Shown in pieces: positions 9,337-40,361 of a stretch of DNA of 55,977 bases. Position 1 is the first letter of the stretch. The number at the start of each line of letters is the position of its first letter. Below the pieces are notes generated by a model. The model worked only from the letters and a program-made list of their open reading frames with translations, was not told where the DNA came from and searched no databases. The position numbers were made by a program, and so were the translations under genes. This stretch comes from Clostridiaceae bacterium (GTDB lineage: Bacteria; Bacillota; Clostridia; CAYPLH01; DUMO01): the NCBI GenBank assembly GCA_012839865.1, contig DUMO01000028.1, positions 1 through 55,977 on the forward strand. Reading direction: 5' to 3'.

Positions 9337-10248
9337 TCATGCCTTGGGATTGACAGCAAAAAATTTATTTAAGTCCTGCTTTTTTGCAATAACTTCTTCA
9401 AAAAGATCCCCTAAATCCTCTACCCTTTCCTTAATGGTTTTTATATTAAATGTTCCCGGGTCAAGCTTTCCCCCCTGGACCTCGTCCCATGTCAGGGGGG
9501 CTGACACAGGAGCCCCCGGATGAGGTCTTACGCTGTACTGGCAGGCCATTGTTTTTCCTCCGGAGTTTTGAAGGTAATCAAGGTATACTTTGCCCTCCCG
9601 GTTTTCAATAAGCCTTTCCATGGTTGTCCTGTCCGGGTAAACCCTGTTTATCATCCTGCAGATAAACTGCACGAATTCCTTCACTTCGCTAAAAGTATGC
9701 TTTGGCTCTATGGGAACATAAATGTGCATACCTGTTGAACCGGATGTCTTGGGATACCCTTTTAATCCAAATTCTCCGAGGGCTTCTTTAACAAGCAGCG
9801 CTACACTGATTACACTGTCAAATCCAAGGGGAGGCATAGGATCAAGATCAAACACCGCAATATCCGGATGCTCTATATGAGCGGTACGGGAAAGCCAGGG
9901 ATGCATTTCTATGCAGCCTTGATTAACCAGCCACACCAGGGTTTCAACATCATTGCAGACAATATAATCAATATTCCTGTCTTTCTTTTCAGAATATACG
10001 GGATATGTCTTAATCCATTCAGGCGCATATTCAGGGCAATCCTTCTGATAAAAGGACTCCCCTTCAATCCCGTCTGGATATCTGTTCATGACAAACAAGC
10101 GGTCCTTAAGATGTGGCAGAAGATATTCCGAAATTTCATAATAGTATAAAACAAGGTCGCCTTTTGTATAGTTGTCCTGCGGCCACAACACCTTGTCCAT
10201 GTTTGTAAGCAAAAGCTCTTTCCCATTAACTTTTACGGTTTTATCCAT
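9337..10248 (-). CDS. LigD-type NHEJ polymerase/primase (stand-alone PolDom)
   Basis: 303 residues from ATG 10248 (AGGAG 8 nt upstream; the ATG at 10254 is too close). This is the archaeo-eukaryotic primase-fold domain of bacterial LigD. It fills gaps at double-strand breaks with ribo- or deoxynucleotides. The metal pair is in AVFDLDP (about 133-138) and the third acid in the YPDRTTMERLIE to KVYLDYLQN region. KVLWPQDNYTKGDL and KTSGSTGMHIYVPI are typical. It overlaps the ligase gene end by 8 nt. In Pseudomonas and Mycobacterium this domain is fused to the ligase. Here it is a separate protein and no phosphoesterase domain exists in the operon. Confidence 0.92.
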   Translation of the reverse strand: MDKTVKVNGKELLLTNMDKVLWPQDNYTKGDLVLYYYEISEYLLPHLKDRLFVMNRYPDGIEGESFYQKDCPEYAPEWIKTYPVYSEKKDRNIDYIVCNDVETLVWLVNQGCIEMHPWLSRTAHIEHPDIAVFDLDPMPPLGFDSVISVALLVKEALGEFGLKGYPKTSGSTGMHIYVPIEPKHTFSEVKEFVQFICRMINRVYPDRTTMERLIENREGKVYLDYLQNSGGKTMACQYSVRPHPGAPVSAPLTWDEVQGGKLDPGTFNIKTIKERVEDLGDLFEEVIAKKQDLNKFFAVNPKA

Positions 10249-11206
10249 TCTCATCTCTCCTGATTATGCATTCCCTGGGGTCCTTGTCACTCCGCACTCC
10301 CTTGAAAGAGGCATGTCTTAGTCCGGACTCCCCTTTTTCAAGAAATTCAACTGTGCACACAAGATATGCAGCTCCAAAAATCCCTGAGGATATTTCCTTG
10401 ATATTATTCTCAAAAGGGTACTCCCCATGAGTCAGGTTGAAATGTTCCACCAGCATTTCGCAGTCCTCCCGGGAAAATCCTGTACCCACAGTCCCTTGAT
10501 ATACAAGCTTTTCATTATCATCATACAGTCCGAGTATCAGCGAACCCAACCCCCACATCTTTCCCCTTAAATACCCGCAGGCAACAAAGTCCTCCTCTAT
10601 TACCTTTTTAAATTTCAACCAATAATTCGTCCTTTTTCCGGGAACATACGGACTGTCTGTTTTTTTAGCCACAACTCCTTCAAGGCCTCTTGAAACTGCA
10701 GCATTATAAAATTCAATACCTTTATCAAAAATATAATCTGAAACGACCATAGTCTTGCTGTTTATTACCGTGTCTTGAAGAATATCCTTTCTTTCTTTTA
10801 AAGGGATGCTCAGAAGTTCTCTCCCTTTTGAATAAACAATGTCAAACACAACATATGTTGCAGGATTGGTTTGGGCAATGCGAATAAGTTTGTTTCTATC
10901 CTTAATGCTGCTTCTTTTCTGCCATTCATGAAATGAAGGCATTCCATTCTTCATTACGACAATTTCACCGTCAAGTATGACAGGATGATTGTTTACCAAT
11001 CCGGACAAGCCCTCAAATTCCGGGTATTCAAATGTAATATCCCTGTTATTGCGGCTTTTAAGCACCGTTTTTTCGTCGATGTATGCAAGGCACCTTATTC
11101 CATCCCACTTGATTTCATACATGTAATCTTCCGAATCAAAAGGATCATGCCTTAATGCCAGCATTGGCTTTAAATTTTTTTTTGCAAACAGATCGTTGGA
11201 CATCAT
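10241..11206 (-). CDS. ATP-dependent DNA ligase (LigD ligase module)
   Basis: 321 residues. It seals DNA nicks using ATP. The adenylated lysine is in motif I, E-I-K-W-D-G-I-R (K33). Motifs III-V are visible (VILDGEIVVM, EGVVAKK, NYWLKFK). The OB-fold C-terminus reaches RHASFKGVRSDKDP. The start ATG ATG overlaps the Ku stop (ATGA). The protein contains only the catalytic core plus OB fold, the same span as the ligase part of LigD. It acts with Ku and the polymerase encoded on either side. Confidence 0.93.
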   Translation of the reverse strand: MMSNDLFAKKNLKPMLALRHDPFDSEDYMYEIKWDGIRCLAYIDEKTVLKSRNNRDITFEYPEFEGLSGLVNNHPVILDGEIVVMKNGMPSFHEWQKRSSIKDRNKLIRIAQTNPATYVVFDIVYSKGRELLSIPLKERKDILQDTVINSKTMVVSDYIFDKGIEFYNAAVSRGLEGVVAKKTDSPYVPGKRTNYWLKFKKVIEEDFVACGYLRGKMWGLGSLILGLYDDNEKLVYQGTVGTGFSREDCEMLVEHFNLTHGEYPFENNIKEISSGIFGAAYLVCTVEFLEKGESGLRHASFKGVRSDKDPRECIIRRDENG

Positions 11207-12015
11207 GATGTATTTCTCTTCTCCCTGCTCTTCTCCACCTTCTTCCCGTCTTTTGCCATTTTTATGCTTGCCCTCAAGGCCTCCATAAGGTCAACAACAT
11301 TTCCTTCATACAACTTTTGAGGTGTTTCAACCTCCTGTCCAGTAATCTTGCTTTGAATAAGCTCCATTAATGCATCCCGGTAATCGTTTGAATATTTTTC
11401 AGGTTCAAAGGCCTCTGAAAGGCTGGTTATTAAATTAACCGCCATTTTGAGTTCATTTTCATGAATCTTCACATTATAGCTGAGTTCAGGTATCCCGGCT
11501 GTGTTTCTGATTTCATCAGGATAAAACATGGTTTCCATGACAATGTCGCTGCCCTTGACCCTGATGGCTGAAAGAGTTTCCTTGGAGCGGATAACAACCT
11601 TGGCTATGGCTACCTTGCCGGTCTCTTCTATTGCCTGCCTTAAAAGTTCAAAGGCCTTCTGCCCGCCCTCATTTGGAGCCAGATAGTATGATTTGTCAAA
11701 ATATACAGGGTCAACCTCTGATAAATTTACGAAATTTATAATATTAATGCTTTTTGTTGTCTCAAGGGGGATTTTCTCAAAATCTTCATCTGTCAGTACT
11801 ACATATTTTCCGCTTTCATACTCATAACCCCTGACAATTTCATCGGCTTCCAAGTCCTTGCTGCATGCAGGACAGTGCTTCTTATATTTGATTGGAGTCA
11901 TATCCTCTTTATGAAGATAGTTGAATTTTATATCCTTGTGTGATGTCGCCGGATACAGTTTAATTGGAATATGCACCAACCCGAAGCTTATCGCACCTTT
12001 CCAAACAGGGCGCAT
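11203..12015 (-). CDS. ku: Ku homodimeric DNA-end-binding protein
   Basis: 270 residues, usual for bacterial Ku. The opening MRPVWKGAISFGLVHIPIKL is diagnostic. A C-x2-C pair (HCPACSKDLE, about 48) is followed by the ring-forming beta-barrel core (about 60-230). A basic tail (MAKDGKKVEKSREK) is suitable for ligase recruitment. Ku threads onto double-strand ends and recruits LigD. It is first gene of the operon ku-ligase-polymerase. RBS GAGGTGA lies before the ATG. Expression in spores or stationary phase would match the role of this pathway in other Firmicutes, but no clear sporulation promoter was recognised upstream. Confidence 0.96.
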   Translation of the reverse strand: MRPVWKGAISFGLVHIPIKLYPATSHKDIKFNYLHKEDMTPIKYKKHCPACSKDLEADEIVRGYEYESGKYVVLTDEDFEKIPLETTKSINIINFVNLSEVDPVYFDKSYYLAPNEGGQKAFELLRQAIEETGKVAIAKVVIRSKETLSAIRVKGSDIVMETMFYPDEIRNTAGIPELSYNVKIHENELKMAVNLITSLSEAFEPEKYSNDYRDALMELIQSKITGQEVETPQKLYEGNVVDLMEALRASIKMAKDGKKVEKSREKRNTS

Positions 12016-12220: not shown

Positions 12221-12495
12221 CAAATGAAATGTATAGAGAACAATAACAATTGGCTTTATTTTGCCAGAAAATCAGGTGAGATAAAGGCAAAAATGCTTGA
12301 AAAAGACAGGATGTTTTTTATCTTTTTTAAGCCACGGAGGGTAAGTAAAAAGCGGTAGCATTTTTGCCTTCAGTGTGCCCGTATATTTTCTCAAAATAAA
12401 AGACTTGTTCCAGAAAAGCCAGGGAGCATCGAGCCCCGCTCGCTTCTGGCCGGATTTGCTTCGCAAATAGCCCTGTTCTGTATACATTTCATTTG
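12221..12495. repeat. 275-bp nested palindromic element (MITE or structured RNA candidate)
   Basis: Outer inverted arms CAAATGAAATGTATAGAGAA+CA (12221-12242) and the complement at 12474-12495 match in 21 of 22 positions. A nested perfect 14-bp pair AAGGCAAAAATGCT (12284-12297) / AGCATTTTTGCCTT (12357-12370) follows, plus small hairpins CGAGC-GGG-GCTCG and ATTTGC-GAA-GCAAAT. A 71-codon open frame inside (12272-12487, minus) has no RBS and no family and is probably incidental. The rest of the gpsA-ku spacer (12016-12220 and 12496-12563) is AT-rich with nothing recognised. No target-site duplication was seen. Confidence 0.65.
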
Positions 12496-13704: not shown

Positions 13705-16700
13705 TTACCCCAAGGTTACCACCACATTGTGGGTCTTTCCATCATCCACAAGTTTAATGCTTCCGGATTCTGACTCTACCTGTACACCGTCCACTGCAAC
13801 TTCCACTACACCCTTATTAACGCCCTTCGGATTCTTAACATTTATTTGATACAAGCTCCTGCCATACCTGTATTCCGTGCTGAATTCCGGCCAGTGCCGC
13901 GGAATACAGGGGTCTATGACAAGTTCCTCTCCATTTTTCTTGAGCCCTAAAATGTACTCAATTCCTACCTTGTATACCCAACCTGCCGAACCGGTATACC
14001 ATGTCCAGCCGCCCCTTCCTGTATGCGGATGAACAGAATATACGTCCGCCGGCATTACATAAGGTTCAACTTTGTATCTTGAATACTCAATATGTGTCCT
14101 GGAATGATTAATCGGGTTAATCAGTTCAAAAAGCTCCCACGCCTTGTCACCTTGTCCCAACATGGCAAAAGCCAGTATCACCCAGGCTGCTGCATGTGTA
14201 TATTGCCCGCCGTTTTCCCTTACTCCGGGAACATAACCTTTTATATACCCCGGGCTTGGCTCACATATATCAAAAGGAGGCGTAAGAAGTTTAATCAGCC
14301 CTTCATCTCTCCTTACAAGATAATTCTCGAGGGAGTCTATGGCTTCTGCCACTCTTTCCGGGTTTGCAGCTTTTGATATTACCGCCCACGACTGGGAAAT
14401 GGAATCGATTTTACATTCATTGTTCTGCACCGAGCCCAGTGGAGTGCCATCATCAAAATATGCCCTCCTGTACCAACTGCCGTCCCAGGCATTCTCTTCG
14501 ATGCTTTTTACAAGGTTTTCAGCAACACTTTTGTATCTTTCAGCACTCTCATTATCTCCCATGGCTTCGCACAAAGGCAGAAAATCCATGATATTGGCAT
14601 AAAGGAACCATCCAAGCCATACGCTTTCACCTTTGCCCTCATGCCCCACCAGGTTCATGCCGTCATTCCAGTCGCCGGAGCCCATAAGAGGAAGACCATG
14701 GCTGCCAAACTTGAATCCATACTCCAGGGCCCTTTTGCAGTGTTCGTACAAGGTCGCGGTGCTTGATGAAACCTTTGGCCTGATATAAATTTCATGTTCA
14801 TGTTCCTGCAGAAACTGCCCCTCAAGGAAAGGAACCGTTTCTTTCAGAATATCAAAATCACCGGTTGCCTTGACATATTTGGATGTAACATAGGGCAGCC
14901 ACAGGTAGTCATCCGAATACCGGGTTCTTGTTCCTTTATCCCCTTGCTCATGCCACCAGTGCAAAACATCTCCTTCTACAAACTGGTGGGCTGCATGAAG
15001 CAGAATCTGCCGCCTTGCAAGCTCGGGCCATATTTCAAGGACAGCCATTACATCCTGCAGCTGGTCCCGGTAGCCGAAAGCTCCTCCGGACTGGTAAAAT
15101 GCAGACCTTGCCCAGAGCCTGCATACTATGACCTGATACAGAAGCCATCCGTTCAGAATCAGGTTCATGGAATTATCCGGAGTTTTAATCCTGATTGTGT
15201 CAAGAAGCCTGTTCCAGAAGCCGGCAACCTCCTCCAGCGAATTCTTTACAGTATTTATATCCCTGTATTTTTTCCTTAATTCATCAGCCTCCTGCCTGCC
15301 ATATTCCATGCCCAGCAGCAAAACCACTTCACAAGTTTCTGAAGGTGCCAGTTTTATATTTGTCTGCACCGCAGCGCAGGGGTCCATGCCTGCACCCACT
15401 GTTCCGGAAAGCTTCTGGCGTTTCAGGCCTTCAGGAGATTTCAAATCCCCTGTGCCCAAAAAATCTTTTCTGTTGCCGGTTATTGTTTTTGAGTTGCCTG
15501 TCATGTCAACAAATGCTACAGTGCCTTTGAATTCATCATTATACTTGTTTTCAACCATAAGGGCATTATCCCCCGTGGTGGAGGTGACCAGATATCTTGC
15601 AGTAAACTGGTCGCTGACACCCAAAACAGGCCTTATATAGTATGTCAGGGTAAGATTTCTCTCCTCCCGGGTGTGGTTTGTCAACTTGACCAGAGTAACT
15701 TTCACAGGGTCCCTTCTTGGTACAAACACCGTCATACTCTGCTCAATGCCGTGGCTCGCGTGTTCAAAGACGGTATAGCCAAAGCCGTGTCTTATTACAT
15801 ACGGTGTTTTTTCCCTTACAGGCAAGGGAGTTATTGTCCATATTTCACCTGTATCCGAGTCACTTATATAAAATACTTCCCCGGGAGTGTCGGATACAGG
15901 GTCATTTGACCAGGGTGTGATTTTATTCTCACGGCTGTTTTCAAACCAGGTATGTCCTCCACCTGACTCCGTAATTAAAAACCCCATCCGCTCATTTGCT
16001 ATTACATTAACCCAGGGAAGAGGTGTGTGCATTGATTCATTGAGCCGTATGACATACTCCCTGCCTTTTTTGCCAAACCCGCCAATTCCGTTGAAAAACT
16101 CCAAACCTTCTTCCATGGGTTTCGCAAAGCCGTAATCTCCAGGCTGCCTGGTGAATTTTTTATACGGAGGCAGTTTCAGTTCCCCCGGCGTCTGAATTTG
16201 TTCATAAACATAACCTCCGTCACTTGTCAGCACAATTCTGGCTGCAGTATAAAGAAGATTCATTTCAGCTTCGGTCAATTCATTGCTTTTTATTATGAAC
16301 ACTCCCCCGGGTTTGTTCATCAATTCCTGTCCATGGCTGGTGCAAACCACGTCCGCCAGCAGGGTTTGAAGGGGGTGAGTGTAACCGGCTTCCTCTTCAT
16401 TAAGTATGACAAGATCCACTTTCAGGTCTTTAACCCTCCAATATTCATGGGCTTTCAAAACTTCATAAACAATGTCCACCTCATCCATTTTCTTCAATAC
16501 AACAATAACAATCGGTAAATCTCCTGAAATTCCAAAAGCCCACAGGGATGACTGTCCAAGCTCATTCTTCAGTATATGGCTCTCCTTTTTGCGAAGAAGC
16601 GGGCTTATATATAGAATATGACTCATCATATCCTGATAAATTTCCATTTCAAAGGGCTTCAGGTTCAGATACCGGGCCTCCACCCTGCTCCTGGTCAGGG

Positions 16701-19700
16701 CCAGCCTGAATGCCGCTTCAATGTTATCCGTATCCTGATATTTTTCGGCAATCTCCAGCAAATCGCTTTTACTGTCAGCAACCGCAGTTATAAAAGATAT
16801 TCTGGCTGTGTCTCCAGGTTCAATCCTGAGCAACTGGCGAAAACTCATTATCGGGTCCAATACAGGTCCTACGGTATTGGATAGAGGTTTGTTTTTCACC
16901 ATGGCAGCGGGATTTGCTGCAGTATGGCCTCTGCCGATAAAATTACTCCTGTCGGTTTCATACTGTACTCCTCCCACTTCATCTCCTTCCACAACCATGG
17001 TGTTTACCATCCACATGGTCCGCCCGGTGTCCGCCCTTGGCCGGCGTTTTGCCAGCAGGCTGCGGTATTCCGGGACATATTCCGTTTCTATGAACAAGTT
17101 GCTGAAGGCAGGATGAACCACGTCCCCGCCATGATTTGCCAGTACAATCTCCATGTAGCTGGTAACCTCAATAACAGCCGGTGTCTTTCCGTGATTGGCA
17201 ATGGAGAGCATTCGGATTTCCGCATTTTCACCTGATGCCACAACTATTTCGGTCTGGGTGCTTATATCCTTGTCAGTTCTTGAAAACTTTGCCTTATCCG
17301 GTGTAAAGGTCACGGAGTATTTTTCCGGCAAATTCCCGTCCGGTTCCAGTATGGCATTCCATACCGTATTAGTCTCTACATTTCGTATATAGAAAAACAT
17401 CCCGTAACAATCGCAGGTCAAGTCCTCTCTCCACCGGGTAACATCCAGGTTGTTGCACCTGCTGTATCCGGTACCCCTGTCAGTCACCATAACCGAATAA
17501 CTCCCGTTTGACAAAATATGTGTCCGTGGAATAACCGGGTCCGGTTTCTTGAAGATTCGTACTGAATCTCCTTCACTATATACAATGTCCTTGAAGGGCG
17601 TGATTTTTTCCTTGTTTTCCTTTGTAAACACAATATTTGTAGGAACCTTTTCCTGCAGCAACAGCTGGGCGGACTTTATCACCGGGTCCCTGTGAAAACG
17701 CTCCTGCATAATGTCCTTATTAAGAAAATTATTCAATGAAAGCAGGCTCATTCCCTGGTGGTGGGCCATAAAGCTTTTAACAATACCCTTGTTGCTGCCA
17801 AATGGCAGTCTTTCAGGGGTATAATCCACAGCTTCATAGAAACCATAAGGTCCATCGAGCCCTTCCTTTATAAGCTTCCTGATATTCTCCATTGCTCCTT
17901 CCGGATCAATGGGCAGGGCCAGCAAGGTGGCATAAGGCGCTACAACCATATCCTCAATCAGCCCTCTTTTAAGCCCCAGCCATGGCAAACCGAAGGCCTT
18001 GTACTGGTAATTCAGGTTTATGTCCAGGGAGTAAAATCCCGATTCAGATGTCCCCCATGGCACACGCCTTTGCTTTCCATATTTTTTCTGACTTCTGACA
18101 ACAAAGGAATATGTCTCATCCAAAAGGGTATTTTTATACCTTTTCATTATCAGGAGAGGCATGAGGTATTCAAACATGGTGCCGCTCCAGGAAACCAGTC
18201 CTTTATAGTAATCAATAACCGTCAGGGTCCTGCCCATGCGAAACCAATGTTTTTGCTCCACTTCCCCCCTGGCTATGGCAATATAGCTTGCCTGCCTTGC
18301 CTCGGACGCAAGAAGGTCATAATATGAGTTGGTCAGTTCATTGTCTTCAATGTTGTACCCAATGGAAAACAATTGCTTCTTTTTATCATATAAATGTATG
18401 AATTCAGTTTCATCCGCCAGTTTGTCTATCTTCCTGACAAGTTCGGTATACTTCTCAATGAATTTGCCCGTATTTTCCACTGATTTGGCAACTGCCTTCG
18501 ATAGTTCCTCAAGCCATGCAAAGAGCTCAGGATTGTTGTAATTGCTGCCTGACAAGCTCTCATGTATATTCCTTAACTCATTAAGAATATCACCGTATTC
18601 TGCTATTTGGGCAACAGTCGTATTACTTTTCAGCACCTCGATTATTTTTTTAAGGCGTTCCGGTATTTCCCCCTGTTTTTCAAAATCGCCATTCACTGCT
18701 GATTCCGGAAAACTTTCAAGAACATAAATCCAGCGTGCAAACTCCATAAGCTCTTTTTTATGCTTCTGCATCATGTGTTCAACTTTCGACTTCCAGACAG
18801 ACTTATGACAGTTGATTTTTTTACAGTTTGCACTGATTTCATCAAGAACTCTGGCCCACATTACAAGGCTTTGGTCCCCTGCCGTCCTGAGTTTTGCCAG
18901 GGACTCAAAGCCAAATTTGTCCTGTACGTTATTTGGCTCCACAAGGCTTATGGTATCCTCCAGCCCCTGAATAAAGACTGTGTCGAATATTGGCTTTTGC
19001 AGGTATTCCTGAAGACTTTGGCTTAGAACAATCAAATATCCGACAAAGTTTCCACTGTCCACAGTAGAAACATACCTTGGCCTTAAAGGGTAAAGGGAAC
19101 GTGTATCATACCAGTTCAGCAAATGCCCGTTCCATTTTTCCATCCTTTCTACTGTAGAAATGGTATCATAAACCATTTTATAGAGTTCATAAGTGCCAAT
19201 ATACCCCATATCCCTCGCTGTTACGGCTGAAAGAAGCCCAAGGCCAATGTTTGTCGGTGATGTCCTGTACGCAATGCCATTCGGAGGGTCCTCCTGGTAA
19301 TTGTCAGGAGGGAGGTAATGGTTCTTTTGATTCATAAACTCCTCAAAATAGCGCCAGGTTTTGCGGGCCAGCTTTCGCAAATCCTGAATATCACTGCTGC
19401 CAAGCTCAATATTATCCTCGTCAATGCTTATGCTTATATACCATGCAACGAAGGGTGCACTGCACCAGATCAAAAACAGAGGCACAGATACAAGCAATGT
19501 TACCGGCTTATAAATTAATGAGCTTACGACAACCAGCAATGCCACAAAAACCGACGGACGCATTTTGCCCCAAAAAGACAAAACACCTTTGTGGGACTGT
19601 TTTTCAACGGCTGCTGCAGGCACCCACTCAAGCATGTTTCTTCTTGATACCGCCAACCTGTAAAGGGTCTTTAAAACAGCATGGCTCATAAAATATGCCT

Positions 19701-22449
19701 GGTGAGGCAGGAAAATAAAAAGCAGTAAAACCCTGAGCAGTGTTGCCTTAAGGCCAGTGATAACCGGGATATGTCTTTTCTGGGACCTTGTCCTGAATTT
19801 TTTTGACAGGATATGATCAATCACCCCTGTCACCAGCGGGAATGCCTGTGCCAGAACCGATATTCCAAGCCAGAAAAAACAGTTGCCGGGCAATATTCCA
19901 AATCCCAGAACAATAATCAGCATTAACAGCGGCGAAACCAGACTCCTTCTGATATTGTCCAGAATCTTCCACCGGGATATTATTGACAAGGGATTTTTCA
20001 CCCTGTTGCCTTTATTGTTGACAACCGTCGGGCCAAGCCACCTTAAAAGCTGCCAGTCTCCCCGAACCCAGCGGTGGGCCCTGTTTGAAAATGAAATATA
20101 CTTTGAGGGGAAACTGTCAATAAGCTCTATATCCGTCACAAGTCCGGCCCTTACATAGGAACCTTCCAAAAGGTCATGACTCAGTACGGTGTTTTGAGGA
20201 ATCGCATCCTTAAGCAAATTGTAGAAAACTTCAAGGTCATATATGCCTTTACCTGTAAAAATACCTTCCCCAAACAGGTCCTGATATATATCCGATACCG
20301 CGTTGGAATATGGATCAATCCCGTATTCCCCCGCAAAAATACGTGAAAAGAGGGATTTATTTGCACTTTCAAGGTCTACTCCTATCCGGGGCTGCAACAG
20401 CCCGTACCCGTCAACCACAATTCCTTTGTTTTTATCTATTACCGGACGGTTCAATGTGTGCATCATGGTCCCTATAAGCCGCTTTGCTCCATCTATGGGC
20501 AGCATTGTATCTGCATCAAGGGTTATAACATACTTGATTTTGGGCAGCTTGCCAATATCATCAGATTTAATGGAATAGGATGTGTTTTCGTCCCCCAGGA
20601 GCATTGCATTAAACTCCATAAGGGCTCCTCTTTTTCGCTCCCATCCCATCCATTTGTTCTGCCTTTTATTGAGCTGCCTGTGCCGGCAGAGAAAATAGAA
20701 GATGGGGGCTTCATCTCTCTTATGCTTTTCATTAAGCTGTCTTACAACCTCAAGGGCTGTATCCGCAATTCTTTTGTCGGTGGGCAAAGTCTCCTCATCA
20801 GCATCCCTGAAATCCCCAAGAAGGGCAAAAAACAAGTTTTCGTCCTTATTTGCAAGGTAATGGACTTCAAGGTTCAAAACAAGTTCCCTGGCGGTGCTTT
20901 CATCCGTCAGGAGCGCCGGAACCACAACCATTGAAGCATTATCCCGGTCTATTCCGTCCTTTAATTCGAGTTTTGGAATAAAAGCCGGCTTGAAACTATG
21001 ACTGAGTATCCAGTTGACTAAATTCAAAGCAATATCGGAAGCCGGTATGATTGCTATCAAGACAGCAATAATTGCTGCCGGATGATTGTTATTTGAAGCC
21101 TTCAGTGCATATCTTGCCGCAAAACACACCAGCAATACCGTAAGGACGGAGATTGAACCTAAATACAACAATGCAGGGTACTTTCCCAACCTGCCATGAA
21201 TTTTACCGAAAATGCCACACTTGTAACCCATTTCTTTATCAAGGTCATATACACCTTTATCGACTATATAGTATCCTACATGGGTTTTTCTTTCGTCCAT
21301 TCCCTCCACTTTCGCCTTTTGGGAAAGTTCAAGTATTTTTTGGGCAACATGGCTTTCCGATACGTTATATTTCCTTGCAAGACCTTCAAGATTATTTCTG
21401 TAGTAATTCCTTGATGGCAGGTCCATCCTGGGATATGTTCCGTCAGGGTCCTCCCTTAAGTATTTCTCACTTATGCTGAGGGATTCGAAAATTTCTATCC
21501 AGTCAATGGAGGAAATGTATTTTAAGCTTATTATGCAATTTTCAATGGAATATTTCCTTACAGCTTCATCATTATGCTCTTTCTGGGTTACCGCCTTAAG
21601 GGTGGTGCCAAATTGTGCAAGCCTCTGGTCAATAATGTGCAGTATAGACGAGCCGGAACGCCCCATTTTTCTTATCCTGTATGATAAATGCTCCAAAAAA
21701 GCAGGATTTATTTCATTCATTGCTTTAATCTGAGTTTCCAGGGCTTTAATGAGCTTGTCATATTCCTGCTCCCCGTCAGTGACAATACTGTCCAGAAGCT
21801 TGTCGGCCTTTCTTTTCTGTATCCTTGATTGCATGATTTTTTCACAGATAAACCTCAGCTTTTCAATAATGGCAATCCGGATCATGATTGACAATGTCCA
21901 CAGTTCCTGATTTGTCAGGATACTATGGGTCTGGTAGGCTTTTATATAGTTGATGAGCGTCTTGTCATCCACTTTTGCATTTGTGTGGGACACAAGCTCC
22001 AGGGCAAGGTTGTAAATTCGTGCATACCCTCTCATGGGGCCTTTTTCAAGTATGGGAAGGAGTGAATACTGTTTTTTTGTCAAATCCCTTCGGATGCTTT
22101 TTACCTGCTCCTCAATAATGTAAAAATTGTCCAGGAGCCATTCAGCCGCAGGTGACGTTTTGTGCATGTTTTGCACATCCAGATTCAAGCTCTTGTAGAC
22201 ATAAATAATATATTTATAATTATCGTTCATTCTCGGTACAGGCCAGTTGATTGCAAGGCTCTTTTTAACACTGCCCTGTTCAAAAGCCATGTGTTTTGCA
22301 TGTTCTTCCAGTTCCTCACTTGTCAATGAAGCATCATGGATTTTTAAATCAAGTATTCTTCTGTCTCTTGACTGCAGCAAAAAAAGCTGCAATAAAATAA
22401 TAATTGCTGCTATAAATCCGATTGCTCCGATTAAACTGTAATATTGCAT
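13705..22449 (-). CDS. cyclic beta-1,2-glucan synthase (NdvB/ChvB-like, GT84 + GH94)
   Basis: 2914 residues. Membrane helices at the N-terminus and near residues 425-475, 835-920 and 975-1020 hold the protein in the cytoplasmic membrane. A GT-type catalytic domain lies at about 530-830, with the metal/sugar acid motif L-D-A-D-T (about 645) and WVRGDWQLLRW, the Q/RxxRW-like acceptor signature. A large helical glucoamylase-like and GT36-repeat portion (1040-2200) is followed by a GH94 phosphorylase-like C-terminus whose catalytic acid sits in S-G-D-W-N-D-G (about 2591). In Brucella and Agrobacterium this enzyme starts, extends, trims and cyclises beta-1,2-glucan from UDP-glucose. Here product and export are unproven. 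Length and domain order are complete. It follows the YhaO/YhaN pair after a 240-bp gap. Confidence 0.9.
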   Translation of the reverse strand: MQYYSLIGAIGFIAAIIILLQLFLLQSRDRRILDLKIHDASLTSEELEEHAKHMAFEQGSVKKSLAINWPVPRMNDNYKYIIYVYKSLNLDVQNMHKTSPAAEWLLDNFYIIEEQVKSIRRDLTKKQYSLLPILEKGPMRGYARIYNLALELVSHTNAKVDDKTLINYIKAYQTHSILTNQELWTLSIMIRIAIIEKLRFICEKIMQSRIQKRKADKLLDSIVTDGEQEYDKLIKALETQIKAMNEINPAFLEHLSYRIRKMGRSGSSILHIIDQRLAQFGTTLKAVTQKEHNDEAVRKYSIENCIISLKYISSIDWIEIFESLSISEKYLREDPDGTYPRMDLPSRNYYRNNLEGLARKYNVSESHVAQKILELSQKAKVEGMDERKTHVGYYIVDKGVYDLDKEMGYKCGIFGKIHGRLGKYPALLYLGSISVLTVLLVCFAARYALKASNNNHPAAIIAVLIAIIPASDIALNLVNWILSHSFKPAFIPKLELKDGIDRDNASMVVVPALLTDESTARELVLNLEVHYLANKDENLFFALLGDFRDADEETLPTDKRIADTALEVVRQLNEKHKRDEAPIFYFLCRHRQLNKRQNKWMGWERKRGALMEFNAMLLGDENTSYSIKSDDIGKLPKIKYVITLDADTMLPIDGAKRLIGTMMHTLNRPVIDKNKGIVVDGYGLLQPRIGVDLESANKSLFSRIFAGEYGIDPYSNAVSDIYQDLFGEGIFTGKGIYDLEVFYNLLKDAIPQNTVLSHDLLEGSYVRAGLVTDIELIDSFPSKYISFSNRAHRWVRGDWQLLRWLGPTVVNNKGNRVKNPLSIISRWKILDNIRRSLVSPLLMLIIVLGFGILPGNCFFWLGISVLAQAFPLVTGVIDHILSKKFRTRSQKRHIPVITGLKATLLRVLLLFIFLPHQAYFMSHAVLKTLYRLAVSRRNMLEWVPAAAVEKQSHKGVLSFWGKMRPSVFVALLVVVSSLIYKPVTLLVSVPLFLIWCSAPFVAWYISISIDEDNIELGSSDIQDLRKLARKTWRYFEEFMNQKNHYLPPDNYQEDPPNGIAYRTSPTNIGLGLLSAVTARDMGYIGTYELYKMVYDTISTVERMEKWNGHLLNWYDTRSLYPLRPRYVSTVDSGNFVGYLIVLSQSLQEYLQKPIFDTVFIQGLEDTISLVEPNNVQDKFGFESLAKLRTAGDQSLVMWARVLDEISANCKKINCHKSVWKSKVEHMMQKHKKELMEFARWIYVLESFPESAVNGDFEKQGEIPERLKKIIEVLKSNTTVAQIAEYGDILNELRNIHESLSGSNYNNPELFAWLEELSKAVAKSVENTGKFIEKYTELVRKIDKLADETEFIHLYDKKKQLFSIGYNIEDNELTNSYYDLLASEARQASYIAIARGEVEQKHWFRMGRTLTVIDYYKGLVSWSGTMFEYLMPLLIMKRYKNTLLDETYSFVVRSQKKYGKQRRVPWGTSESGFYSLDINLNYQYKAFGLPWLGLKRGLIEDMVVAPYATLLALPIDPEGAMENIRKLIKEGLDGPYGFYEAVDYTPERLPFGSNKGIVKSFMAHHQGMSLLSLNNFLNKDIMQERFHRDPVIKSAQLLLQEKVPTNIVFTKENKEKITPFKDIVYSEGDSVRIFKKPDPVIPRTHILSNGSYSVMVTDRGTGYSRCNNLDVTRWREDLTCDCYGMFFYIRNVETNTVWNAILEPDGNLPEKYSVTFTPDKAKFSRTDKDISTQTEIVVASGENAEIRMLSIANHGKTPAVIEVTSYMEIVLANHGGDVVHPAFSNLFIETEYVPEYRSLLAKRRPRADTGRTMWMVNTMVVEGDEVGGVQYETDRSNFIGRGHTAANPAAMVKNKPLSNTVGPVLDPIMSFRQLLRIEPGDTARISFITAVADSKSDLLEIAEKYQDTDNIEAAFRLALTRSRVEARYLNLKPFEMEIYQDMMSHILYISPLLRKKESHILKNELGQSSLWAFGISGDLPIVIVVLKKMDEVDIVYEVLKAHEYWRVKDLKVDLVILNEEEAGYTHPLQTLLADVVCTSHGQELMNKPGGVFIIKSNELTEAEMNLLYTAARIVLTSDGGYVYEQIQTPGELKLPPYKKFTRQPGDYGFAKPMEEGLEFFNGIGGFGKKGREYVIRLNESMHTPLPWVNVIANERMGFLITESGGGHTWFENSRENKITPWSNDPVSDTPGEVFYISDSDTGEIWTITPLPVREKTPYVIRHGFGYTVFEHASHGIEQSMTVFVPRRDPVKVTLVKLTNHTREERNLTLTYYIRPVLGVSDQFTARYLVTSTTGDNALMVENKYNDEFKGTVAFVDMTGNSKTITGNRKDFLGTGDLKSPEGLKRQKLSGTVGAGMDPCAAVQTNIKLAPSETCEVVLLLGMEYGRQEADELRKKYRDINTVKNSLEEVAGFWNRLLDTIRIKTPDNSMNLILNGWLLYQVIVCRLWARSAFYQSGGAFGYRDQLQDVMAVLEIWPELARRQILLHAAHQFVEGDVLHWWHEQGDKGTRTRYSDDYLWLPYVTSKYVKATGDFDILKETVPFLEGQFLQEHEHEIYIRPKVSSSTATLYEHCKRALEYGFKFGSHGLPLMGSGDWNDGMNLVGHEGKGESVWLGWFLYANIMDFLPLCEAMGDNESAERYKSVAENLVKSIEENAWDGSWYRRAYFDDGTPLGSVQNNECKIDSISQSWAVISKAANPERVAEAIDSLENYLVRRDEGLIKLLTPPFDICEPSPGYIKGYVPGVRENGGQYTHAAAWVILAFAMLGQGDKAWELFELINPINHSRTHIEYSRYKVEPYVMPADVYSVHPHTGRGGWTWYTGSAGWVYKVGIEYILGLKKNGEELVIDPCIPRHWPEFSTEYRYGRSLYQINVKNPKGVNKGVVEVAVDGVQVESESGSIKLVDDGKTHNVVVTLG

Positions 22450-34130: not shown

Positions 34131-34284
34131 AGCAAAGTTTGATATAGTTATGACATCAACTGTTGTTGATTCATATGCAATCTGTTCTGATATATCTGTT
34201 TGTTCTGCATACTTTTCATTTCTCAGATACCTGGCAATGTAGAAGCTGATTATTTATGAAATAATACTTCTGAACTCAATACTA

Positions 34285-39302: not shown

Positions 39303-40361
39303 CTAATCAGCCAGGAAATATACGTTAACATACTTGATTCCCCAATCATAAACCTCTTCCTGGGTGTCCAGGTATATATCAATTATGTTGCCTTTTATAG
39401 AACCGCCTGTGTCGGCACAAACAGCAAATCCATAATCGGGGGTCTTGCCCCTCACCTCAACATATACCCTGGTGCCCAGGGGAATAACATTAGGGTCAAC
39501 TGCGATTACACCTCTCTGGGCTTTAATTCCGGTGGAAGTAATTCCAAAATAAGGATCCCAGGGATGTTTGCCTGTATCTTCATAAGATGCTGTATAAGCT
39601 GTGCATTTCATATTGTAAATGACTTTGGTATATCGTATTTCTCCGCCTCTTGCGGTTTCGTAGCGAGTTACCGTTCCATACTCTACAATTTCGTCTATAG
39701 GGTTTTCAAGTACCGTTTCGTTTATGAGTTCCCTTGAAATTTCCACATTATCTTCATAAACTACTTTGTATCTTTTTTCCCTGACACCTTCCTTACCCTC
39801 TTTTATAATCCTCTCTATGCCTTTATCCATCTCTTCGTTAGGCTGTTTTGATACACCATATGCTATAGGCAGCAATTCTTCTATAATTTTCTCTTCCACC
39901 TTTACAACTTTTATAAACATATTTGGTGTTATCTCATCATATAAAGCAGCTCCTTCAAGCCTGTCATCACCATCAACAAAAATACCCCGTGAGCTTAACA
40001 ATTCCTCGACAGTTCTCTTGTATGTGTTTGCCGTAAACTGCTGTCCCCCGGCTTGAACGATAACAGGAACGGCTTTGGCAATACTGTCACTCATGGTCTC
40101 ATCAACCGGATCCCGGCTGGAAAATGAATTTATTATTGTATCAGTATTTAAACTTAATGCAAACTGCTTGAATACTTCCCCGGTAATAGAATTGGCAATT
40201 CCGGAAATCTCTATTTTTCCATATTCATTTACAATAACATCCTTCTTAAACTGACTGAAAGCGTACACTCCAGAGCATACGGAAAGCAAAACAGCAGCGA
40301 CTGCAACAGCCATTTCCCTGCTTATCACCTTCCGAATATCTACTCCTTTAAAGTGTCTCAT
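39303..40361 (-). CDS. yabE: YabE-like wall-associated protein (DUF348, G5, 3D domains)
   Basis: 352 residues from ATG 40361 (AGGAGG 8 nt upstream). One membrane or signal helix is near residues 15-36 (MAVAVAAVLLSVCSGVYAF). A DUF348 repeat region follows (about 90-140, TYKRTVEELLSSRGI). The G5-like domain is at about 165-235 (REKRYKVVYEDNVEISRELI). The C-terminal 3D domain (about 255-352) carries the three aspartates of its name (A-V-D-P, A-D-T-G-G, I-D-I-Y-L) and G-T-R-V-Y-V. The 3D fold is a lytic transglycosylase-like fold (as in MltA and Sps/Rpf relatives), so peptidoglycan remodelling is likely. Confidence 0.9.
   Translation of the reverse strand: MRHFKGVDIRKVISREMAVAVAAVLLSVCSGVYAFSQFKKDVIVNEYGKIEISGIANSITGEVFKQFALSLNTDTIINSFSSRDPVDETMSDSIAKAVPVIVQAGGQQFTANTYKRTVEELLSSRGIFVDGDDRLEGAALYDEITPNMFIKVVKVEEKIIEELLPIAYGVSKQPNEEMDKGIERIIKEGKEGVREKRYKVVYEDNVEISRELINETVLENPIDEIVEYGTVTRYETARGGEIRYTKVIYNMKCTAYTASYEDTGKHPWDPYFGITSTGIKAQRGVIAVDPNVIPLGTRVYVEVRGKTPDYGFAVCADTGGSIKGNIIDIYLDTQEEVYDWGIKYVNVYFLAD

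What the first reader, a model, noticed from the sequence alone, without database searches (positions are those of the whole stretch)
12221..12495. Unexplained 275-bp nested palindromic element between gpsA and ku
The outer arms match at 21 of 22 positions. A perfect 14-bp inner pair and at least two tight hairpins (CGAGC-GGG-GCTCG, ATTTGC-GAA-GCAAAT) sit within. The string CCAGAAAA appears twice (about 12265 and 12411), next to each half. No recognisable gene lies inside. The design suits either a MITE whose family I cannot name or a large structured RNA transcribed toward ku. It is the strongest structured signal in the window without an explanation.
Basis: seen in the sequence. Interest (0 to 1): 0.68.

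Follow-up and report, generated by a model that had tools for sequence, protein, structure and literature searches.

The report
Mobile repeat carrying CsrA-site-like RNA
The palindrome between gpsA and ku is one of dozens of copies of a small mobile DNA element whose core is a known but orphan structured RNA (TwoAYGGAY) that looks like a docking site for the global regulator protein CsrA, so a jumping repeat seems to be spreading regulator-binding RNAs through Clostridia genomes.

Summary
In detail: 22-nt outer arms (21/22), a perfect 14-bp inner pair and strong folding. The element is one copy of a dispersed family: about 80 loci in this 2.74-Mb Clostridia genome, 35 with the full core. Its 19-bp inverted-repeat ends frame two modules. 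Module A is Rfam RF01731 (TwoAYGGAY). Several sibling copies pass the curated threshold; the window copy is degenerate (23 bits). Module B (64 bp) is an extra, unnamed hairpin module that only long copies carry. The RNA strand is the + strand, pointing away from ku.

In 37 of 391 sampled Clostridia-class genomes TwoAYGGAY is mostly multi-copy. In a Mahella-like genome the copies have common inverted ends and 8-9-bp target duplications (13 of 20 copies, against 1 of 380 mismatched pairs), so there it is a genuine MITE. No duplications were found in this genome. The two hairpin loops match the CsrA SELEX consensus, and all 23 genera with TwoAYGGAY include a CsrA genome (77 of 222 overall). CsrA binding itself is untested.

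Unexplained: the outer arms of each copy change together (38 double against 16 single changes), with no RNA-strand bias, which suggests one arm is copied from the other.

The parts
12221..12242 (.). left terminal inverted repeat (family consensus of the outer 19 nt AATGAAATGTATGCAGAAC)
   Evidence: 21/22 with right arm; consensus from sibling copies
12474..12495 (.). right terminal inverted repeat
12243..12409 (+). module A: TwoAYGGAY-type RNA core shared by 35 copies in this genome
   Evidence: Rfam RF01731 in sibling copies
12265..12389 (+). stretch of the window copy matched by RF01731 TwoAYGGAY (23 bits, below the 43-bit threshold)
12295..12332 (+). hairpin 1; ACAGGATGT at 12306-12314, GGA 12309-12311 in the loop
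   Evidence: fold; SELEX consensus RUACARGGAUGU from PMC7652899
12331..12341 (+). hairpin 2 GCC-ACGGAG-GG, GGA 12336-12338 in the loop
12284..12297 (+). 5' half of inner 14-bp stem enclosing the two hairpins
12357..12370 (+). 3' half of inner 14-bp stem
12410..12473 (.). module B: 64-bp two-hairpin module found only in long copies, also found with the ends but without module A
11203..12015 (-). flanking gene ku
   Evidence: Pfam PF02735
12564..13535 (-). flanking gene gpsA (NAD-dependent glycerol-3-phosphate dehydrogenase)
   Evidence: Pfam PF01210/PF07479

Best explanation
It is a copy of a non-autonomous mobile element (MITE-like). Inverted-repeat ends carry no gene but a structured RNA of family TwoAYGGAY (module A), and in long copies a second hairpin module (B). 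SHOWN: dispersed copies, common ends, modular sizes, the RNA family, multi-copy TwoAYGGAY elements in other Clostridia, and target duplications in the Mahella-like genome. INFERRED: a transposase supplied in trans moves the DNA; when a copy is transcribed on its RNA strand, the two GGA-loop hairpins are exposed on a long stem and bind CsrA, so the copies together act as CsrA decoys or locally place a CsrA site on a transcript. My estimates: mobile repeat carrying TwoAYGGAY, about 0.92; the hairpins bind CsrA, about 0.6; a net effect on the CsrA pool that matters to the cell, about 0.3. The window copy is degenerate in its stems but keeps both GGA loops.
For: Dispersal: 35 copies with the whole of module A, about 80 loci counting B-only and ends-only copies. 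RNA family: sibling copies score 51.7, 46.6, 45.6, 45.3 and 54.6 bits against a 43-bit threshold; 26 copies at E<=0.01 in this genome. Other genomes: 37 of 391, most with several copies, up to 18. Target duplications: 13 of 20 copies in G036 against 1 of 380 control pairs. CsrA-like sites: own loop 1 is ACAGGAUGU; SELEX consensus RUACARGGAUGU (PMC7652899); GGA-loop hairpins per copy 1.23 (own) and 1.88 (others) on the RNA strand against 0.11 and 0.21 on the other strand and 0.47 in shuffles; loops kept while stem sequences change completely. Co-occurrence: CsrA in 32 of 37 TwoAYGGAY genomes against 92 of 354 others (Fisher p 5e-13), and in 23 of 23 genera against 77 of 222 (p 2e-12). This genome has csrA in a flgK-flgL-fliW-csrA-flagellin cluster. 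Strand: stems inside module A tolerate GU more than AC in the RNA orientation (20 GU against 10 AC outside the outer arms; 16 against 6 in GGA hairpins).
Against: No target duplication in this genome and no transposase linked to these ends was found. There is no expression data. In this genome the RNA strand is mostly opposite to the flanking genes (15 against 3 co-directional), so read-through would usually make the wrong strand; a dedicated promoter was not shown. CsrA co-occurrence is confounded by phylogeny, because both sit in motile lineages. In this genome several copies lost GGA in loop 2 (e.g. CCTGTGAGGG in L011, L020, L025), and some g25 and G201 copies have ACACGAUGU in loop 1.
Confidence: 0.75

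Rival explanations
1. The TwoAYGGAY core has nothing to do with CsrA. The GGA hairpins are the DNA or RNA recognition structure of the element's own mobility machinery, as hairpins are in REP/IS200-type systems, and the CsrA correlation is only shared ancestry.
For: The element is mobile and the core is its most conserved part across genera; the outer arms behave as DNA palindromes without RNA-strand bias; the CsrA test is not phylogenetically corrected.
Against: The loop matches the CsrA SELEX consensus including ACA, GGA and GU; 23 of 23 genera have CsrA; B-only and ends-only copies have dispersed without the core (in G036), so the core is not needed for mobility.
Confidence: 0.3
2. A CsrA-independent or CsrA-linked small RNA gene (CsrB-like) that merely became duplicated; not a mobile element in this genome.
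For: No target duplications here; Weinberg et al. rated TwoAYGGAY 'probably an RNA', not cis-regulatory (PMC2864571).
Against: Ends shared by copies with different or no core, intergenic scatter over most contigs, and 8-9-bp target duplications in a relative.
Confidence: 0.08
3. REP/REPIN-type palindrome family mobilised by the genome's RAYT (Y1 transposase).
For: Palindromic, intergenic, many copies, no target duplication here; exactly one Y1_Tnp gene in the genome.
Against: That gene is surrounded by a different palindrome (AGGACAGAGAACCGTCCCCTGTCC), with no match to this element's ends or modules; the Mahella-like relatives have 8-9-bp target duplications, which IS200-type transposition does not make (general knowledge).
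Confidence: 0.07

Closest known systems
TwoAYGGAY RNA (Rfam RF01731; Weinberg et al. 2010, PMC2864571)
   Same: Covariance-model match over the full 168 positions in sibling copies, two hairpins with AYGGAY loops, enclosing stem.
   Different: The papers held and read do not describe it as the core of a dispersed inverted-repeat element; here it is one module of several, present in dozens of copies with common ends.
Hypothesis that TwoAYGGAY is a CsrA-binding sRNA in Clostridia (RMfam paper, PMC4333381)
   Same: Same two hairpins matched to the CsrA-site model.
   Different: That was a motif match only. Here are added copy number, mobility, loop conservation over 56 distinct hairpins, and co-occurrence with CsrA.
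Bacterial MITEs
   Same: Short, no gene, inverted-repeat ends, high copy number; target duplications in the Mahella-like genome.
   Different: Carries a conserved structured RNA; no partner transposase found; no target duplication in this genome; arms of each copy change in concert.
CsrB/CsrC/RsmZ decoy RNAs
   Same: GGA in hairpin loops, proposed sequestration of CsrA.
   Different: Two sites per element rather than many per molecule; dispersed mobile copies rather than one or two dedicated genes.
REP/REPIN palindromes with RAYT
   Same: Dispersed intergenic palindromes.
   Different: RAYT of this genome is linked to another repeat; element is larger and carries an RNA family.

Membership tests
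TwoAYGGAY RNA (RF01731) | score at or above gathering threshold (43 bits) | tested here: met
   sibling copies L022 51.7, L030 46.6, L014 45.6, L013 45.3, G000:C6:18494 54.6; the window copy itself fails (23 bits)
TwoAYGGAY RNA (RF01731) | two adjacent hairpins with AYGGAY-type loops inside an enclosing stem | tested here: met
   window copy has ACAGGATGT and ACGGAG loops
MITE | many dispersed copies, short, no coding capacity | tested here: met
MITE | common terminal inverted repeats | tested here: met
MITE | target-site duplication | tested here: inconclusive
   not found in this genome; met in Mahella-like G036, 13 of 20 copies against 1 of 380 controls
MITE | related autonomous transposon with the same ends | tested here: inconclusive
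   not found among the loci read in this genome or in 28 G036 loci; the genomes were not read in full
CsrA-binding RNA | GGA in a hairpin loop matching the SELEX consensus | tested here: met
CsrA-binding RNA | CsrA protein encoded in the same genome | tested here: met
   PF02599 at G000:C18:26242-26400
CsrA-binding RNA | physical binding and sequestration | not testable with these tools
   needs pull-down or gel shift
REP/REPIN with RAYT | repeat flanks or resembles repeats at the RAYT gene | tested here: not met
single syntenic structured RNA gene | one copy at a conserved locus | tested here: not met

The most novel reading that the evidence does not exclude
A class of transposons across Clostridia spreads CsrA-binding decoys: dozens of mobile TwoAYGGAY copies per genome titrate or relocate the global regulator CsrA. 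On each round of movement one terminal arm is rewritten by copying the other, which explains arms that differ between copies yet match within a copy.
Probability: 0.25. Interest if true: 0.82.

Novelty: new variant of a known kind. Interest (0 to 1): 0.62.

Why it matters
TwoAYGGAY has been an orphan RNA since 2010. Finding it as the cargo of a mobile repeat, in genomes that encode CsrA, turns it into a testable question: do transposons carry and disperse binding sites for a global RNA-binding regulator? It would also offer RNA antagonists of CsrA in Gram-positives, where control is known mainly through FliW (PMC7652899). The concerted arms are a second open question, about how bacterial palindromes keep themselves matched.

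Tried and rejected
Rfam at gathering threshold on the window: nothing. Named-genome scan with a module-A pattern: nothing, own genome withheld. Phage and plasmid collections: no match. RAYT link: rejected. Transposase between lone ends at C1:8195-10586: no ORF resembling one. Target duplications in this genome at any nearby offset: none. Outer arms as an RNA stem: mismatch types are symmetric (G201 12 GU/11 AC, G366 14/16), so RNA selection is disfavoured for the outer arms. microRNA hits on the short hairpins are sub-threshold chance matches to palindromes. Cis-regulation of ku: not supported, because the RNA strand points away from ku and across genomes orientation is not consistent.

Full report
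WHAT IS THERE. The arms 12221-12242 and 12474-12495 match at 21 of 22, a perfect 14-bp inner pair lies at 12284-12297/12357-12370, and both strands fold far better than shuffles (z -5.8 and -7.1). The element lies between gpsA and ku, both on the minus strand, and holds no recognisable gene. The repeated CCAGAAAA is incidental: sibling copies differ there, and the two places belong to different modules.

IT IS A DISPERSED FAMILY. A search of the genome the window comes from (2.74 Mb, 89 contigs) gave dozens of copies at 78-91% identity to the window copy. With a consensus query, 35 copies carry the whole core. A second query found about 27 copies of the right-hand module, and a search for the end sequence found 90 sites, about 80 loci in all. 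The outer end is a 19-bp inverted repeat, AATGAAATGTATGCAGAAC. Sizes fall into classes: ends only (about 50-80 bp), ends plus module B (about 120-140 bp), ends plus module A (about 208 bp), and ends plus A plus B (about 270 bp, the window copy). This modular make-up is typical of non-autonomous mobile elements (general knowledge).

THE CORE IS A KNOWN RNA. Infernal against Rfam gives TwoAYGGAY (RF01731) on module A: 51.7, 46.6, 45.6 and 45.3 bits in sibling copies, threshold 43. The window copy is degenerate and scores only 23 bits over 12265-12389 +, which is why the default scan missed it. The RNA strand is +, away from ku. TwoAYGGAY was reported in 2010 from human gut, gamma-proteobacteria and Clostridiales as a probable RNA, not cis-regulatory (PMC2864571). 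A later paper proposed from a motif match that it binds CsrA (PMC4333381). Neither the passages read nor the literature searches showed a description of it as part of a mobile repeat.

OTHER GENOMES. Of 391 genomes sampled from the class, 37 hold RF01731. With fuller scoring, most hold several copies, up to 26 here and 18 in two others. I read 56 copies from 11 other genomes: they lie within inverted arms of roughly 25-70 bp, although a few (for example L169, L170, L176) show only short or weak arms. In G036, identified as Mahella-like because its 30-nt core pattern occurs in records titled Mahella sp., the elements are 121-463 bp long, have common ends (CTGCGATTCGTAATAT) and come with and without the TwoAYGGAY core. 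Of 20 copies, 13 have direct duplications of at least 8 bp at the ends, against 1 of 380 mismatched left-right pairs. That is the signature of transposition. In the window's own genome the same kind of test found no duplication, so its mode of insertion remains open. No transposase with these ends was found; the genome's single RAYT-type gene belongs to a different palindrome family.

WHY CsrA. The SELEX consensus for CsrA is RUACARGGAUGU, with GGA in the loop of a short hairpin (PMC7652899). The first hairpin here is ACAGGAUGU (one base shorter than the consensus), the second GCC-AYGGAK-GGC. Over 91 copies, GGA-loop hairpins number 1.23 (own) and 1.88 (others) per copy on the RNA strand, 0.11 and 0.21 on the other strand, and 0.47 in shuffles. 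Fifty-six distinct hairpins keep the loop while their stems change completely, with 16 GU against 6 AC (these were selected by a loop pattern, so the loop itself is not evidence there). CsrA (PF02599) is encoded in 32 of 37 TwoAYGGAY genomes against 92 of 354 others, and in at least one sampled member of all 23 TwoAYGGAY genera against 77 of 222 overall. The five exceptions all have a CsrA-bearing member of the same genus in the sample, and three of them are less than 90% complete. Shared ancestry could produce part of this. The window's genome has csrA in a flgK-flgL-fliW-csrA-flagellin cluster (gene names by reading the translations, csrA by Pfam). Binding itself is untested.

THE ODD ARMS. 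In 24 short copies aligned in element orientation, the outer 20 pairs show 38 double Watson-Crick changes and 16 single changes; the rest of the element shows 8 and 52 (Fisher p 3e-10). Left and right arms of a copy agree far better than arms of different copies (0.911 against 0.795, z 15.6), and a weaker excess runs 13 bp beyond the consensus end (z 4.0). In G201 the arms are copy-specific over about 30 bp; in G112, two copies have related but different arms, each matched within itself. Mismatch types are symmetric (12 GU/11 AC; 14/16), unlike an RNA stem. Copies are related, so counts are not independent events, and the 45 arm pairs were chosen by a script that favours matching arms; the 24-copy alignment was not chosen that way. 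The simplest reading is that one arm is copied from the other at the DNA level, by template switching or during transposition; insertion into existing palindromes is an alternative. Neither is shown.

HOW IT MOST LIKELY WORKS. DNA with inverted ends is moved by a transposase supplied in trans (inferred). The cargo, when transcribed on its own strand, displays two CsrA-type hairpins on a long stem and binds CsrA (inferred, about 0.6). Whether this acts as a pool of decoys, a local regulator, or protection of the transcript cannot be told from sequence. Against simple read-through, in this genome the RNA strand is mostly opposite to flanking co-directional genes (15 against 3, p 0.008), though other genomes show no bias.

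VERDICT. Ordinary in each part (MITE, known RNA family), unusual in combination. New variant of a known kind, interest 0.62.

Noticed in passing
window 34201-34220: Lone copy of the element's right end (GTTCTGCATACTTTTCATTT) without a matching left arm nearby.
   Followed up: partly
L089 (G000:C67, around 39804-40136): Single Y1/RAYT-type transposase gene surrounded by AGGACAGAGAACCGTCCCCTGTCC palindromes, a separate REP-like family.
   Followed up: partly
L006, L018, L043, L072: Copies with doubled terminal arms on both sides; the outer and inner arm pairs share copy-specific variants, as if arms were duplicated and mirrored locally.
   Followed up: partly
L196-L198 (G036): Second module in the Mahella-like element (GGACCACAGCAATCTTTGATTGCGTAGTGGTCC hairpin), an analogue in position of module B here; function unknown.
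   Followed up: no
L154-L160 (G201): TwoAYGGAY copies with about 30-bp copy-specific outer arms around a conserved core.
   Followed up: partly
window 9337-12015: Compact NHEJ cluster: ku, LigD-type ligase and LigD primase-polymerase as separate genes on the minus strand.
   Followed up: partly
window 13705-22449: 2914-aa minus-strand ORF that looks like a cyclic glucan synthase-type glycosyltransferase/phosphorylase (by reading only; no search run).
   Followed up: no
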